Shown piece by piece: positions 49,647 to 60,262 of a stretch of 64,000 bases of DNA. The DNA is from Rhizobium brockwellii (GTDB lineage Bacteria; Pseudomonadota; Alphaproteobacteria; Rhizobiales; Rhizobiaceae). The stretch's first letter is position 1, and each line of letters opens with the position of its first letter. Where the stretch lies: the NCBI RefSeq assembly GCF_000769405.2, contig NZ_CP053439.1, positions 3,100,001 to 3,164,000 of the forward strand. Reading direction: 5' to 3'. Below the pieces are notes generated by a model, which ran no database searches, was not told where the DNA came from, and worked only from the letters and a program-made list of their open reading frames with translations. A program made the translations under genes and the position numbers.

Positions 49647-51434
49647 TCAAGCCTTGCCAGCCTTGACCTCGAGCACGCGGTTGGCGGCCGAGACGATCGC
49701 TTCCAGCGACGCCGCGACGATGTTGGTATTGATGCCGGCGCCGAAGAGTTTGCCGCCGGGATAGGAAGTCTCGACATAGGAGATCGCCGCTGCGTTCGAG
49801 CCATGCTGGAGCGAGTGCTCGGAATAGTCCTCAACCGACATCTCGATGCCGAGATAATGCGACAGCGCGTTGATGAAGCCGTCGATCGGACCGTTGCCGC
49901 GCCCTTCGATGCGCTTGATCTCCCCATTGTCGGTGATCTCGGCTGCGACGATCCGCTGGCCCTTGTGCTCGGTGTCGGGATAGGTGTGATGGTCGACGAA
50001 GCGCAGGCGCCCTTCCGGCTGCGTCACGTAGCGCTCGATGAAGCGGTCGTAGATGCGCCGGGACGGAAGCTCTTTGCCCTCTACGTCGGTGATGCGCTGG
50101 ATATCCTCGCGGAATTCCACCTGCAGGTTACGCGGCAGGTTCAGCCCGTAATCCTGCTGCAAGATATAGGCGATGCCGCCCTTGCCGGACTGCGAATTGA
50201 TACGGATGATCGCCTCGTAGGAACGACCGACATCACGCGGATCGATCGGCAGGTACGGGACCTCCCACACGGGATGGTTGGCGACCTGTGCTGCCTTCAT
50301 GCCCTTGTTGATCGCATCCTGATGCGAGCCGGAAAACGCCGTATAGACCAGCTCGCCGACATAGGGATGACGCTCGCCGATCGCCATCTGGTTCGAATAT
50401 TCGAACACTTCCTTGATGCGTTCGATATTCGAGCAGTCGATCTCGGGATCGACGCCTTGCGTGAACATGTTCAGCGCCATCGTCACCATGTCGACATTGC
50501 CGGTACGCTCGCCATTGCCGAACAGCGTGCCTTCGACGCGGTCGGCACCTGCCAGCAGTGCCAGTTCGGCGGCGGCAATGCCGGTGCCGCGGTCATTATG
50601 CGGATGCAGGGAAACGATCAGGTTCTCGCGATTGTCGAGGTTGCGGCACATCCATTCGATCTGGTCGGCATAGACGTTCGGAGTCGCCATCTCGACGGTA
50701 GACGGCAGGTTGATGATCAGCTTATTGTCGGGCGTCGGCTTGACGACCTCGATGACCGCGTTGCAGATCTCCAGCGCCACATCGAGTTCGGTGCCGGTAA
50801 AGCTCTCCGGGGAATATTCGAAACGGTAACCGCCGCCGGCCTTGGTGGCCATATCGGTGATCATCTTGGCGGCATCGACGGCGATCTGCTTGATGCCCTG
50901 CACATCCTTGGCGAAGACGACGCGGCGCTGCAACTCGCTGGTGGAGTTGTAGAAATGCACGATAGGCCGGTTTGCGCCTTCCAGCGCTTCGAAGGTGCGG
51001 GTGATGAGTTCCGGGCGGCACTGCACCAATACCTGCAGGGAGACGTCGTCGGGCACACTGCCCTCCTCCACGCACCAACGGGCAAAGTCGAAATCGGTCT
51101 GCGAAGCCGAGGGGAAACCGATCTCGATTTCCTTGAAGCCCATCTCGATCAACAGCTGGAACATCCGCGCCTTGCGATCGTGGCCCATCGGGTCGACAAG
51201 CGCCTGGTTGCCGTCGCGCAGGTCGACCGAGCACCAGACCGGCGCCTTGGTAATGGTCTTCGTCGGCCATGTGCGGTCGGGAATGTTCACCTGCGGATAG
51301 GCCCGGTATTTTGCCGCGGCATCGGGCATGCCTTTTGCGGGGGCCGTCTTGTTAGTGGGGGCCATCTTATTCTCGGAGGCCATCTTATTTTGGGAGGCCA
51401 CCTTATTTTGGGAGGATTGCGTCTTCGCGTCCAT
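49647..51434 (-). CDS. leuA: 2-isopropylmalate synthase
   Basis: 595 residues. It condenses acetyl-CoA with 2-oxoisovalerate in the first committed step of leucine synthesis. Motifs are VWCSVDLRDGNQALVDPMGHDRKARMFQLLIEMGFKEIEIGFPSASQTDFDFAR, SLHPHNDRGTGIAAAELALLAGADRVEGTLFGNGERTGNVD and, after a linker, the LeuA dimerisation/leucine-feedback domain (about 450-590). The N-terminal tail has four 6-residue repeats (QNKVAS QNKMAS ENKMAP TNKTAP) coded by 18-base tandem repeats at 51342-51413. The start is ATG 51434, with AGGAG 8 bases upstream. A Leu-rich leader ORF and hairpin lie upstream. Confidence 0.95.
   Translation of the reverse strand: MDAKTQSSQNKVASQNKMASENKMAPTNKTAPAKGMPDAAAKYRAYPQVNIPDRTWPTKTITKAPVWCSVDLRDGNQALVDPMGHDRKARMFQLLIEMGFKEIEIGFPSASQTDFDFARWCVEEGSVPDDVSLQVLVQCRPELITRTFEALEGANRPIVHFYNSTSELQRRVVFAKDVQGIKQIAVDAAKMITDMATKAGGGYRFEYSPESFTGTELDVALEICNAVIEVVKPTPDNKLIINLPSTVEMATPNVYADQIEWMCRNLDNRENLIVSLHPHNDRGTGIAAAELALLAGADRVEGTLFGNGERTGNVDMVTMALNMFTQGVDPEIDCSNIERIKEVFEYSNQMAIGERHPYVGELVYTAFSGSHQDAINKGMKAAQVANHPVWEVPYLPIDPRDVGRSYEAIIRINSQSGKGGIAYILQQDYGLNLPRNLQVEFREDIQRITDVEGKELPSRRIYDRFIERYVTQPEGRLRFVDHHTYPDTEHKGQRIVAAEITDNGEIKRIEGRGNGPIDGFINALSHYLGIEMSVEDYSEHSLQHGSNAAAISYVETSYPGGKLFGAGINTNIVAASLEAIVSAANRVLEVKAGKA
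51342..51413. repeat. Four 18-bp tandem repeats in the 5' end of leuA
   Basis: Units at 51342-51359, 51360-51377, 51378-51395 and 51396-51413, on the plus strand like GGCCATCTTATTTTGGGA; the last three differ by one to three bases. They encode the six-residue (Q/E/T)NK(V/M/T)A(S/P) repeat near the LeuA N-terminus, outside the catalytic domain. Confidence 0.85.
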
Positions 51435-51546
51435 CGTATCGTCTCCTCGTCCCGGCATTTGCCCGCTCTTAGCCGATCACGTCGGGCTTGGCGATAAACA
51501 AATGCGGACCTTGTCGGTCGTTAGGTCAATTTTGAAAGTGAGTCGC

Positions 51547-51590
51547 GAGGAGCGATGGCCGGGCGGGCTTACGGCCGCCGGGCGCTCCTC
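51547..51590 (-). terminator. Attenuator-type hairpin between leuL and leuA
   Basis: Outer stem GAGGAGCG (51547-51554 on the plus strand) with CGCTCCTC (51583-51590), plus an inner GGCGG (51562-51566) / CCGCC (51575-51579) stem. On the minus strand it starts inside the leuL stop codon. GCCGGG in the leader (complement of 51597-51602) can instead pair with CCCGGC in the hairpin (complement of 51577-51582), giving two exclusive structures. No long T-run follows, so the mode of termination is open. Confidence 0.6.
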
Positions 51591-51714
51591 AAAGGACCCG
51601 GCAACCGCGCGTAAGGCCGAGGAGAAGAAGCGAGGTCAGGGCGCGCGTATTGTCACGCAGGGCGATGCGGCCGCGTGCAATCGTGTCAGAAATTCTGGCG
51701 CCAGTGGTCTTCAT
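51589..51714 (-). CDS. leuL: Leucine leader peptide of leuA
   Basis: A 41-residue ORF, MKTTGARISDTIARG..., with the run TSLLLLGLTRGCRVL at its end. It has four consecutive Leu codons (CTT CTT CTC CTC, 51619-51630) and two more within the last nine codons. Its ATG (51714) lies 7 bases after a TATAAG -10 box, so transcription should begin at or next to the A of the ATG and the mRNA would be leaderless, as known for rhizobial trpL. The TGA (51589-51591) overlaps the foot of a strong hairpin. leuA starts 155 bases downstream. Stalling at the Leu codons under leucine starvation would favour the alternative fold and leuA expression. The symbol is by analogy. Confidence 0.82.
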   Translation of the reverse strand: MKTTGARISDTIARGRIALRDNTRALTSLLLLGLTRGCRVL

Positions 51715-51721
51715 GACCGCG

Positions 51722-51750
51722 CTTATAGCCTCGGACGGTAAAGCTGGCAA
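51722..51750 (-). promoter_or_regulatory. leuL-leuA promoter
   Basis: On the minus strand TTGCCA (51750-51745) and TATAAG (51727-51722) with an exact 17-base spacer. The leader ATG begins 7 bases after the -10. The remaining sequence up to the BenE-type gene (51751-51863) shows nothing else. Confidence 0.75.
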
Positions 51751-51863
51751 GTCCTTGTCCGGCTTTTGGCCGCCGCCAACATTCGACCAACGGCGCAGCT
51801 ACTGCCGGCGGAGCTGCTTGAAAGCGCCAGGATCCGGCATTTGAAGAGCAGAACGACCTTCCG

Positions 51864-53063
51864 TTACTCCGACTGAGCTCGGTCTTTCCAAATCTTCACC
51901 AGCCGCGACAGCGCCAGCATCAGCCCACCCGCGATCAGGCCCCAGAAGGCGCCGGAAATGCCGCCGAAGGAAACGCCGGAGGCGGTGACGAGGAAGGTGA
52001 TTGCCGCCGCCTCGCGCGAGTCCGGCGCCTGGAAGGCCGACATCGCCGAGGAAGAGAAGGCTCCAATCAGCGCCAGCCCCGCTACCGCCTCGATCAGGAT
52101 CGAAGGCGCGAGTGCGACGAAGGCCGTCACCGCGCCTGCGAGCAGCCCGAGAATGATATAACCGACGCCGGCGATCAGTGACGCCCAATAGCGCCGCTTC
52201 GGATCGGTGTGGGCGTCCTGTCCGGCGCACATCGCCGCGGTGATGGCCGCCAGATTGACCGCGTGGCCACCGAACGGCGCCGACAGCAGCGAAAAGAAGC
52301 CGGTGACGGCAAAGAGCGGGCCGGGCTTCGGATCGTAGTGGTTGACCTTCAGCACCGCGATACCCGGAATGTTCTGCGAGGCCATGGTCACGATGAAGAG
52401 CGGCAGCGCAATCGAGATGAGGCCGGCAAGATTGAACACCGGCCGGACGATCTCCACCGTCGGCACCAGTGATTGTTCCAGCGAGCCGAGCGCACCGTCT
52501 GGGATATCGACGCCGAAGGCGAGCACCAGCACGAAGGCCGCGAGTGCTGCCGGCACCGCCCAAAGCCGCTTGAAGGCGCCGACGACGATCCAGGCAACGA
52601 CGATCGGCAGACCGAACAGCGGATTGAAGCCGATCGCTTTCACCGGCGCGAAGCAGAGACCGATCAGCACACCGGAAAGCATCGCATTGGCAAGCGGCGC
52701 AGGAATCGCGGCAACCGCCCGGCCGAGCGGCTTGAACAGTCCCGCAACGATGATCAGCGCAGCGCAGACCAGGAAGGCCCCGACCGCCGCATTGAAGCCG
52801 CCATCGATCGCCCCGGTGCTTGCCAGCAGTGCGGCACCCGGTGTCGACCAGGCGATGCTGATCGGCAATCGGGTCACGGCACTCAGCACGATCGCGCAGA
52901 CGCCCATGGAAATCGACAATGCCATCAGCCCGGATGCCGCCTGAGCATCCGTCGCGCCGACCGCCTCAAGCCCGTGCAGCACGACGGCGAAGGAACTGGC
53001 GGAGCCGACGAAGGCGGTCAGCAGCCCCATGAACAGAGCTTGGACGGAAAAATCTTTGAGCAT
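51864..53063 (-). CDS. BenE-family (benzoate/H+ symporter-type) membrane transporter
   Basis: 399 residues and about twelve membrane helices. The BenE pattern is visible: VGSASSFAVVLHGLEAVGATDAQAASGLMALSISMGVCAIVLS, RLPISIAWSTPGAALLAST, PAPLANAMLSGVLIGLCFAPVKAI and NIPGIAVLKVNHYDPKPGPLFAVTGFFSLLSAPFGGHAVNLAAITAAMCAGQDAHTDPKRRYWASL. E. coli YdcO and Acinetobacter BenE are relatives. No benzoate catabolic genes are nearby, so the substrate is unknown. ATG 53063 gives the family start (MLKDFSVQALFMGLL); the frame is open to 53177. Confidence 0.9.
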   Translation of the reverse strand: MLKDFSVQALFMGLLTAFVGSASSFAVVLHGLEAVGATDAQAASGLMALSISMGVCAIVLSAVTRLPISIAWSTPGAALLASTGAIDGGFNAAVGAFLVCAALIIVAGLFKPLGRAVAAIPAPLANAMLSGVLIGLCFAPVKAIGFNPLFGLPIVVAWIVVGAFKRLWAVPAALAAFVLVLAFGVDIPDGALGSLEQSLVPTVEIVRPVFNLAGLISIALPLFIVTMASQNIPGIAVLKVNHYDPKPGPLFAVTGFFSLLSAPFGGHAVNLAAITAAMCAGQDAHTDPKRRYWASLIAGVGYIILGLLAGAVTAFVALAPSILIEAVAGLALIGAFSSSAMSAFQAPDSREAAAITFLVTASGVSFGGISGAFWGLIAGGLMLALSRLVKIWKDRAQSE

Positions 53064-60145: not shown

Positions 60146-60180
60146 AAACAAAAAAAGCCGCCTCGAAGTTTCGGGCGGCT
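60146..60180 (-). terminator. trp attenuator terminator
   Basis: Stem AGCCGCC (minus strand 60180-60174) / GGCGGCT (60162-60156), then seven T (complement of 60150-60156) and further T-rich sequence. GGCGGCC, placed directly after the trpL stop (complement of 60211-60217), can pair with AGCCGCC and so forms the antiterminator. trpE(G) begins 53 bases beyond the stem. Confidence 0.88.
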
Positions 60181-60217
60181 CACTCGTCGTCTTTGGACAC
60201 GATTGGTCGAGGCCGCC

Positions 60218-60262
60218 TTAGCGAACCCACCACCAAACAGCAATGTTCAAGGACTTGATCAT
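60218..60262 (-). CDS. trpL: Trp leader peptide
   Basis: 14 residues, MIKSLNIAVWWWVR, with three consecutive Trp codons. It lies between a promoter and a terminator/antiterminator pair, before trpE(G). Ribosome stalling at the Trp codons when Trp-tRNA is scarce would favour the antiterminator. The ATG falls 6 bases after the -10 box, so the transcript should start on it (leaderless). In Sinorhizobium meliloti the homologous leader RNA (rnTrpL) and peptide (peTrpL) are known to act also in trans; whether that holds here is inference. Confidence 0.92.
   Translation of the reverse strand: MIKSLNIAVWWWVR

What the first reader, a model, noticed from the sequence alone, without database searches (positions are those of the whole stretch)
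51547..51750. Leaderless leucine leader peptide and attenuator upstream of leuA
A 41-codon ORF (51714 to 51589, minus) carries CTT CTT CTC CTC plus two nearby Leu codons, right before a strong hairpin that begins inside its stop codon. leuA follows. The promoter (TTGCCA-17-TATAAG) puts the transcription start at or beside the A of the ORF's ATG, so ribosomes would have to load on a leaderless mRNA. GCCGGG in the leader can pair with CCCGGC in the hairpin, giving two exclusive folds. This copies the logic of rhizobial trpL. By analogy with rnTrpL, the released leader RNA or Leu-rich peptide could also act in trans. The hairpin lacks a good T-run, so the mechanism may be unusual.
Basis: partly seen in the sequence, partly recalled or inferred. 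Interest (0 to 1): 0.75.

Follow-up and report, generated by a model that had tools for sequence, protein, structure and literature searches.

The report
Leucine-sensing leader RNA before leuA
In this Rhizobium and its relatives the leucine-synthesis gene leuA is preceded by a tiny leucine-rich gene whose RNA probably lets ribosomes short of leucine switch on leuA translation, a design previously described in a distant group of bacteria, the Actinobacteria.

Summary
A 41-codon ORF with CTT CTT CTC CTC GGC CTT lies upstream of leuA, and its ATG sits 7 nt after TTGCCA-17-TATAAG. The 79 fetched leuA relatives that have upstream sequence all carry a leader of this kind; 76 of 80 sequences have a promoter at leaderless spacing, against 0.84% of control ATGs. 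The interpretation needs changing. The hairpin is no ordinary terminator: 1.69 T in the next 8 nt on average, 1.59 expected. Instead the leucine codons themselves pair with the leuA ribosome-binding site, and the helix and the hairpin's outer stem interleave as a possible pseudoknot. That is the published plan of the actinobacterial LEU element; four actinobacterial loci show similar geometry. Best reading: a LEU-type, probably translational, leucine attenuator in Hyphomicrobiales. Sensing, stalling and output are inferred. Some base-stem tests were weak. Common descent with the actinobacterial element is not shown.

The parts
51722..51750 (-). Promoter TTGCCA-17-TATAAG placed for a leaderless transcript (7 nt from -10 hexamer to ATG)
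   Evidence: such an arrangement in 76 of 80 loci against 175 of 20928 control ATGs
51589..51714 (-). Leucine leader ORF, 41 codons plus TGA: MKTTGARISDTIARGRIALRDNTRALTSLLLLGLTRGCRVL
   Evidence: leaders in the 79 relatives with upstream sequence
51613..51630 (-). Leucine codon run CTT CTT CTC CTC GGC CTT: proposed ribosome stall site and 5' strand of the base stem with the leuA RBS
   Evidence: leaders use CTT or CTC for 402 of 451 Leu codons in their last 16 codons, leuA itself for 663 of 2871; pairing
51597..51607 (-). S1 5' strand CGGTTGCCGGG, inside the 3' end of the leader ORF
   Evidence: S1 pairs in 879 of 880 cells, 3 of its pairs with changes on both sides
51583..51590 (-). S2 5' strand GAGGAGCG, overlapping the leader stop codon (Shine-Dalgarno-like)
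51572..51582 (-). S1 3' strand CCCGGCGGCCG; alternatively part of the hairpin stem
51547..51554 (-). S2 3' strand CGCTCCTC (anti-Shine-Dalgarno-like)
   Evidence: pairs with the leuA RBS in the window fold when S1 forms and S2 does not
51547..51590 (-). Alternative hairpin, 44 nt, -26.9 kcal/mol, without T-tract
   Evidence: no terminator-like site
51455..51505 (-). Linker hairpin GCATTTG/CAAATGC in the window (seen in several Rhizobiaceae, not in all)
   Evidence: read by eye; not counted
51442..51457 (-). leuA ribosome-binding region GCCGGGACGAGGAGA with flank: 3' strand of the base stem with the leucine codons
49647..51434 (-). leuA, 2-isopropylmalate synthase, TIGR00970 type

Best explanation
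It is a LEU-element-type, ribosome-mediated attenuator of leuA that acts mainly on translation. The mRNA starts at the AUG of the leader, and ribosomes load on the leaderless end (inferred from the promoter position). With enough leucine, ribosomes run through the leucine codons and leave at the stop codon. The pyrimidine-rich leucine codons then pair with the purine-rich leuA ribosome-binding site and close it. When charged leucine tRNA is short, a ribosome stalls on CTT CTT CTC CTC, keeps those codons out of the stem and lets S1 form beyond it; S1 excludes the big hairpin and, together with S2, can make a pseudoknot that also keeps the CUCCUC strand off the leuA site. leuA is then translated. 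Shown by comparison: leader, promoter spacing, S1, S2, alternative hairpin, leucine-codon/RBS pairing, missing T-tract. Inferred: leucine sensing, stalling, the pseudoknot in three dimensions, and translation as the output.
For: Leaders in the 79 relatives with upstream sequence. S1 and S2 co-vary: 61 cells changed on both sides against 23.5 +- 3.4 in shuffles, 0 of 500 as high; the number of pairs with such a change (6) is reached by 9 of 500. No T enrichment after the hairpin: mean 1.69 of 8, 6 of 80 loci with 4 or more; 1.59 expected from base composition. Sliding leader segments against the leuA RBS, with RBSs of flanking genes as control (51 representatives of 76 loci, 741 controls), the leucine run stands out: -3.57 +- 0.43 kcal/mol, 19% of controls better. 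Whole-leader folds pair leucine run and RBS (4 bp or more expected) in 78% of 49 representatives, against 41% with synonymous leucine codons and 29% with RBSs of flanking genes; natural above synonymous in 39 of 49, above swapped in 38 of 49; Wilcoxon 5e-7 and 2e-8, rows not independent. RNAalifold, unprompted, predicts this stem in 16 Mesorhizobium/Brucella-like leaders, with UA-to-CG exchange at one pair. A second type of leuA on a Rhizobium plasmid has a quite different 11-bp perfect match between leader and RBS, TTCCGTTGCAT/ATGCAACGGAA (L103). With the ribosome placed on the leucine codons the modelled RBS opens by more than 0.1 in 44 of 73 loci and closes in 3. Similar geometry relative to the stop codon in four actinobacterial leuA leaders.
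Against: In the window itself the pseudoknot-free model does not open the RBS on stalling (0.11 to 0.11); it opens (0.68) only if both pseudoknot helices are held, and over 73 loci holding them opens 17 and closes 13 (the window row there was misplaced by 3 nt and was redone). With a 29-nt leucine segment the swap test is weak (P = 0.07 and 0.08) and a control segment before the run does better (P = 0.035 and 0.023). In one search, 108 of 365 flanking-gene controls pair at least as well, and 45 of 365 do so with the window's own leucine run. With controls matched for purines 37% pair as well; 38 of 51 loci beat half of them but only 6 of 51 are in the best tenth. The focused swap test (P = 0.003) does not correct for relatedness. 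For the base stem in the 16 leaders two of five shuffle measures are unremarkable (350 and 484 of 500 shuffles as high). In the alignment of 21 Rhizobiaceae leaders RNAalifold did not find the base stem. Of the other leuA loci, L144 and L145 show no clear leader/RBS match. Seliverstov et al. cite Streptomyces work in which mutating the leuA leader peptide had some effect, not consistent with classical attenuation, and elsewhere say leucine-codon mutations do not influence regulation.
Confidence: 0.62

Rival explanations
1. Classical transcription attenuation with a terminator that needs no long U-tract: stalling makes S1 (antiterminator); otherwise the hairpin stops RNA polymerase.
For: S1 and the hairpin exclude each other, the hairpin is strong (mean -25.5 kcal/mol) and conserved; a few lineages have T-rich stretches after it (6 of 80); leuA leaders of two Cupriavidus have T-rich stretches after a similar core, by eye.
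Against: No T enrichment in the clade, no terminator-like site in the window; it leaves the leucine-codon/RBS pairing unexplained.
Confidence: 0.18
2. Rho-dependent attenuation: after termination at the leader stop the roughly 150-nt untranslated linker is exposed to Rho; stalling or structure shields it.
For: Median 153 nt (99-218) between leader stop and leuA start, no U-tract terminator.
Against: No test of Rho sites was made here; the conserved RBS pairing is not needed.
Confidence: 0.1
3. Protein-binding element: the pseudoknot is bound by a regulator, as Seliverstov et al. proposed for the actinobacterial LEU element, and the leader peptide is incidental.
For: Several S1 and S2 positions are fixed in sequence although pairing alone would allow exchange; the proposal was read.
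Against: Leucine codons with a CTT/CTC bias far from that of leuA and a leaderless promoter are conserved, which fits translation-based sensing.
Confidence: 0.05
4. Dual function: besides acting in cis, the leader RNA or the Leu-rich peptide acts in trans like rnTrpL/peTrpL.
For: Analogy with Sinorhizobium meliloti trpL (passages read).
Against: No U-tract terminator to release a small RNA; peptide N-termini differ between genera and the conserved C-terminal codons follow RNA pairing (RGCRV becomes GDRRV while S1 is kept).
Confidence: 0.05

Closest known systems
LEU element upstream of leuA in Actinobacteria (Seliverstov et al. 2005, PMC1262725; abstract and passages read; its figures are not held)
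   Same: Leucine-run leader ORF, pseudoknot of two interleaved helices, base stem between leucine codons and the leuA Shine-Dalgarno box, an alternative hairpin, no obvious terminator. Similar order and offsets from the stop codon in Nonomuraea, Microbacterium, Nocardia and Tsukamurella, whose LeuA is related (57% and 52% identity to the window's for the first two).
   Different: Hyphomicrobiales; leader 37-41 codons in 72 of the 76 loci with a scored promoter against 13-16; longer linker in most, with an extra hairpin in some Rhizobiaceae; different arm sequences. LeuA proteins of the two groups do not form one clade.
leuA leader peptide of Corynebacterium glutamicum (PMC4046766, passages read)
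   Same: Small ORF with four consecutive leucine codons detected in front of leuA by RNA-seq, proposed as an attenuator.
   Different: Only predicted as transcriptional attenuation there; structure not given in the passages seen.
Rhizobial trp attenuator trpL/rnTrpL (PMC10117765 passages)
   Same: Leaderless leader ORF in the 5' UTR of a biosynthetic gene of a rhizobium.
   Different: Here no T-tract follows the hairpin and the regulatory codons pair with the RBS of the gene; the terminator of trpL is recalled, not tested.
Leaderless poly-cysteine attenuators of mycobacteria (Canestrari et al. 2020; paper not held; seen only as a reference title, mechanism recalled)
   Same: As recalled: ribosomes stalled on a leaderless short ORF block an RNA structure that hides the RBS of the next gene.
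   Different: Cysteine rather than leucine; other genes; no pseudoknot recalled.
Enterobacterial leuABCD attenuator (Rfam RF00512 Leu_leader, recalled)
   Same: Leucine codons in a leader peptide before leuA (recalled).
   Different: Not matched by Rfam; intrinsic terminator there (recalled).

Membership tests
[quoted passage not shown]
   window and the 79 relatives with upstream sequence; the run is broken up in some distant ones such as L068 and L076
LEU element | Two interleaved helices able to form a pseudoknot | tested here: met
   S1 99.9% and S2 91.6% of cells paired, compensatory changes; co-existence in three dimensions not tested
LEU element | Base stem of leucine codons with the leuA Shine-Dalgarno box | tested here: met
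   weak or negative
LEU element | Alternative hairpin excluding part of the pseudoknot | tested here: met
   in 80 of 80 hairpins at least 5 of the 11 nt of the S1 3' strand pair inside; 70 of 80 exceed their own loop shuffles (mean 8.2 against 6.9 nt, -3.2 kcal/mol)
LEU element | Common descent with the actinobacterial element | tested here: inconclusive
   similar geometry, but LeuA of the window's type and of Actinobacteria are separate clades
Classical transcription attenuator (trpL type) | Leader ORF with regulatory codons and two exclusive folds | tested here: met
Classical transcription attenuator (trpL type) | Intrinsic terminator with U-tract | tested here: not met
   6 of 80 loci with 4 or more T in 8 nt, mean 1.69 against 1.59 expected; none found in the window
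Rhizobial trpL-like leaderless leader | Transcript starts at the leader AUG | tested here: inconclusive
   promoter spacing fits in 76 of 80; no start-site data seen
rnTrpL-like trans-acting RNA/peptide | Released leader RNA or peptide with targets | not testable with these tools
   needs experiments
Rfam RF00512 Leu_leader | Match above gathering score | tested here: not met
   whole window; region, permissive: only two chance-level matches of other families on the other strand, E above 4

The most novel reading that the evidence does not exclude
One leucine switch, built from a leaderless leucine leader, a pseudoknot straddling its stop codon and a stem that uses the sensing codons themselves as anti-Shine-Dalgarno, controls translation of leuA in two phyla (Actinomycetota and the Hyphomicrobiales of Pseudomonadota). 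In Rhizobium the stop-codon-proximal GAGGAG also acts as a Shine-Dalgarno decoy that keeps CUCCUC off leuA.
Probability: 0.4. Interest if true: 0.75.

Novelty: new variant of a known kind. Interest (0 to 1): 0.6.

Why it matters
The LEU element was described in Actinobacteria in 2005 with its mode of regulation called unknown. A large, diverging set in genetically easy soil bacteria, with covariation and a leaderless promoter, makes the question testable: does a ribosome stalled on leucine codons open the RBS by occupying its complement? It would also show that the regulatory codons can double as the anti-RBS strand, which by itself could explain the CTT/CTC bias. In the papers held here, searches with leuA, attenuation, leader peptide, leaderless, leucine and Rhizobium/Sinorhizobium/alphaproteobacteria terms listed no paper whose title, abstract start or passages seen describe this leader; I did not read the listed papers in full, and older subscription papers on proteobacterial attenuators are not held.

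Tried and rejected
An intrinsic terminator was looked for and not found. An early idea that the hairpin's 3' arm (CUCCUC) generally masks the leuA RBS was kept only as a secondary feature: it is the second-best segment in the scan (-1.1 to -1.3 kcal/mol) and strong in the window (8 bp), but has no general effect. A base-stem swap test with a long segment was not convincing; flank controls without purine matching and with it give a moderate effect; the whole-leader fold with two controls is the stronger test. Covariance-model searches of genomes (5 of 150 and 2 of 289 genomes) scored only 30 or 15 candidates per genome, so misses say nothing; the one hit outside the order (L109) was not matched by a core pattern and was not followed further. 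A strict sequence pattern gave 25 of 347 genomes of the order (15 of 16 of the family, 10 of one genus in another family, none of the other 321) and 15 of 349 of the phylum, reversed control 0; being strict, it does not show absence elsewhere. A transfer of leuA between Actinobacteria and Hyphomicrobiales is not supported by the tree. Rfam gave nothing above threshold for the region.

Rows dropped: L080 (only 2 nt upstream) everywhere; L054, L063, L068, L069 (unclear leuA start or odd Leu run); four further loci with fewer than 3 flanking-gene controls; loci without a scored promoter (L042, L044, L068, L076); I gave 16 of the 18 sequences prepared (L061 and L064 left out); one search used the window and 20 chosen Rhizobiaceae loci; the model used 52 of 80 sequences. 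The 49 representatives are listed; the window is not among them (L002 stands for it). In one search several in-frame ATGs per leader were tried, so the control rate per ATG understates chance per locus somewhat. leuA starts were chosen by a rule (SD match, purines, ATG), not from annotation. The first regular expression missed L022, L024, L058, L071, L078, L081, found with a looser one. Two notebook slips: entry 2 gives the S1 5' strand as 51611-51601 (right: 51607-51597); entry 3 says 78 of 80 hairpins are about 44 nt (right: 77 of 80 are 40-57 nt, while L061, L068 and L073 fold longer).

Full report
What is there. On the minus strand a 41-codon ORF (51714-51589) ends 154 nt before leuA (start 51434). 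It carries CTT CTT CTC CTC GGC CTT, and a -35/-10 pair (TTGCCA-17-TATAAG) ends 7 nt before its ATG. leuA matches TIGR00970 above its cut-off. The window lies in a 7.1-Mb genome, of the Rhizobium group judging by LeuA identity of up to 95% to named Rhizobium.

Conservation. The 79 with upstream sequence have a leader and the core. In 76 of the 80 sequences (window included) an in-frame ATG lies 4-9 nt after a TTG-N16..19-TAnnnn promoter, most often 7 nt (41 of 76); of 20928 ATG triplets in the same loci 175 (0.84%) do. Leaders use CTT or CTC for 402 of 451 leucine codons in the last 16 codons; leuA in the same loci uses them for 663 of 2871.

RNA structure. Helix S1 joins the last codons of the leader (51607-51597) to 51582-51572: 11 pairs, 879 of 880 cells paired, with GC/AU exchanges on both sides at three pairs. 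Helix S2 joins 51590-51583, which overlaps the stop codon, to 51554-51547. Together they have 61 cells changed on both sides against 23.5 +- 3.4 in shuffles, and sliding partners by 1-3 columns drops pairing from 96% to 34-59%. S1 and S2 interleave, so both at once would be an H-type pseudoknot; by count there are 6 nt, 0 nt and 17 nt in its three loops in the window, which looks feasible but is inference. Alternatively S2 plus the S1 3' strand make a hairpin: 40-57 nt in 77 of 80 loci, mean -25.5 kcal/mol. On average 8.2 of the 11 nt of the S1 3' strand pair inside it, against 6.9 with the loop shuffled; 70 of 80 loci exceed their own shuffles. So this strand has two partners. The amino acids of the leader's end change (RGCRV to GDRRV) while S1 is kept, so this part is held at the RNA level.

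No terminator. After the hairpin there are on average 1.69 T in the first 8 nt, against 1.59 expected from composition, and only 6 of 80 loci (L041, L044, L063, L065, L070, L076) have four or more. The terminator scan of 51400-51900 finds nothing.

The base stem. Folding the window's leader pairs the leucine codons with the leuA RBS. To test this, 14-nt segments of the leader were paired with the leuA RBS and with RBSs of flanking genes in 51 representatives (741 controls in 76 loci): the leucine run stands out (-3.57 +- 0.43 kcal/mol, 19% of controls better; its two overlapping neighbours -2.3 and -2.8); the hairpin's 3' arm is second (-1.1 to -1.3); the other segments lie between -0.8 and +1.8. 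With whole leaders folded, natural sequences pair leucine run and RBS in 78% of 49 representatives (median 10.5 bp expected), those with synonymous leucine codons in 41%, those with a flanking gene's RBS in 29%. For 16 Mesorhizobium/Brucella-like leaders the consensus fold finds this stem unprompted across about 190 columns, with one pair exchanged on both sides in 5 rows; of five shuffle measures three are reached by 7, 16 and 20 of 500 shuffles and two by 350 and 484. A second type of leuA on Rhizobium plasmids has S1 and an 11-bp perfect match of other sequence between leader and RBS (L103; 9 bp in L143, 7 bp in L141; no clear match in L144 and L145). Against: a longer segment gives P = 0.07-0.08 and a control segment P = 0.02-0.035; 108 of 365 flanking-gene controls pair as well; purine-matched controls pair as well in 37%; the focused swap gives P = 0.003, without correction for relatedness; the Rhizobiaceae alignment does not show the stem.

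How it may work. With the ribosome placed on the leucine codons the modelled RBS opens by more than 0.1 in 44 of 73 loci and closes in 3; mean openness rises from 0.26 to 0.46, and it stays at 0.26 with a ribosome at the stop codon. In the window the RBS opens only if the pseudoknot helices are held (0.11 to 0.68), because otherwise the CUCCUC arm takes the leuA RBS (8 bp); over 73 loci holding them has no general effect (17 open, 13 close). So the leucine codons as anti-RBS strand are the general part; the decoy role of S2 is proposed for the window's near relatives only.

Comparison with the known. Seliverstov et al. [quoted passage not shown] Four actinobacterial loci taken from the plasmid collection (L097, L098, L135, L136) show an S1 of 11-12 bp starting at -21 to -13 and at +10 to +15 relative to the leader stop codon; an S2 of 7 bp starting at +3 to +7 was listed for three of the four (L098's, 5 bp, was only seen by eye); leucine codons pair with the RBS region over 10 bp in L098 and 7 bp in L097, in L136 with a G-rich stretch further upstream, and in L135 no such helix was among the nine listed. 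In the window S1 starts at -16 and +9, S2 at +1. The plan is thus the same. The LeuA tree (25 rows, 11 of the window's LeuA type) keeps the two groups apart, so descent from one element is open. Rfam has no match above threshold.

Verdict. Ordinary in being a leucine leader before leuA, and real; unusual in lacking a terminator and in using the sensing codons as the anti-RBS strand, as in a poorly understood actinobacterial element. No experiment on it was found in the listings and passages seen; the S. meliloti small-protein and start-site papers do not contain the word leuA in the main text held.

Noticed in passing
window 60151-60246 (-): RcsR1 small RNA, full-length Rfam match (111.8 bits).
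   Followed up: no
window about 51505-51455: In 21 Rhizobiaceae leaders the linker between leader and leuA has two conserved blocks (around ATTTG..CATCGCCAA and GATCGGCTA); by eye the spacing does not suit a standard promoter. A second start site or a structural role is possible.
   Followed up: partly
window about 51415-51335 (-): The N-terminus of LeuA in the window has imperfect tandem repeats (SQNKVASQNKMASENKMAPTNKTAP), making it 595 aa against 563-579 in nine Hyphomicrobiales relatives translated from chosen starts.
   Followed up: no
L103, L141, L143, L144, L145: leuA genes on rhizobial and Ochrobactrum plasmids have their own S1-like leader helix of 12-13 bp; L103 and L141 fall in a second LeuA clade (the other three were not placed). 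In L103 11 bp and in L143 9 bp of perfect leader/RBS complementarity.
   Followed up: partly
L102, L137: Cupriavidus leuA leaders carry the same CGGTTGCCGGG core but T-rich stretches downstream, suggesting a termination-type relative.
   Followed up: no
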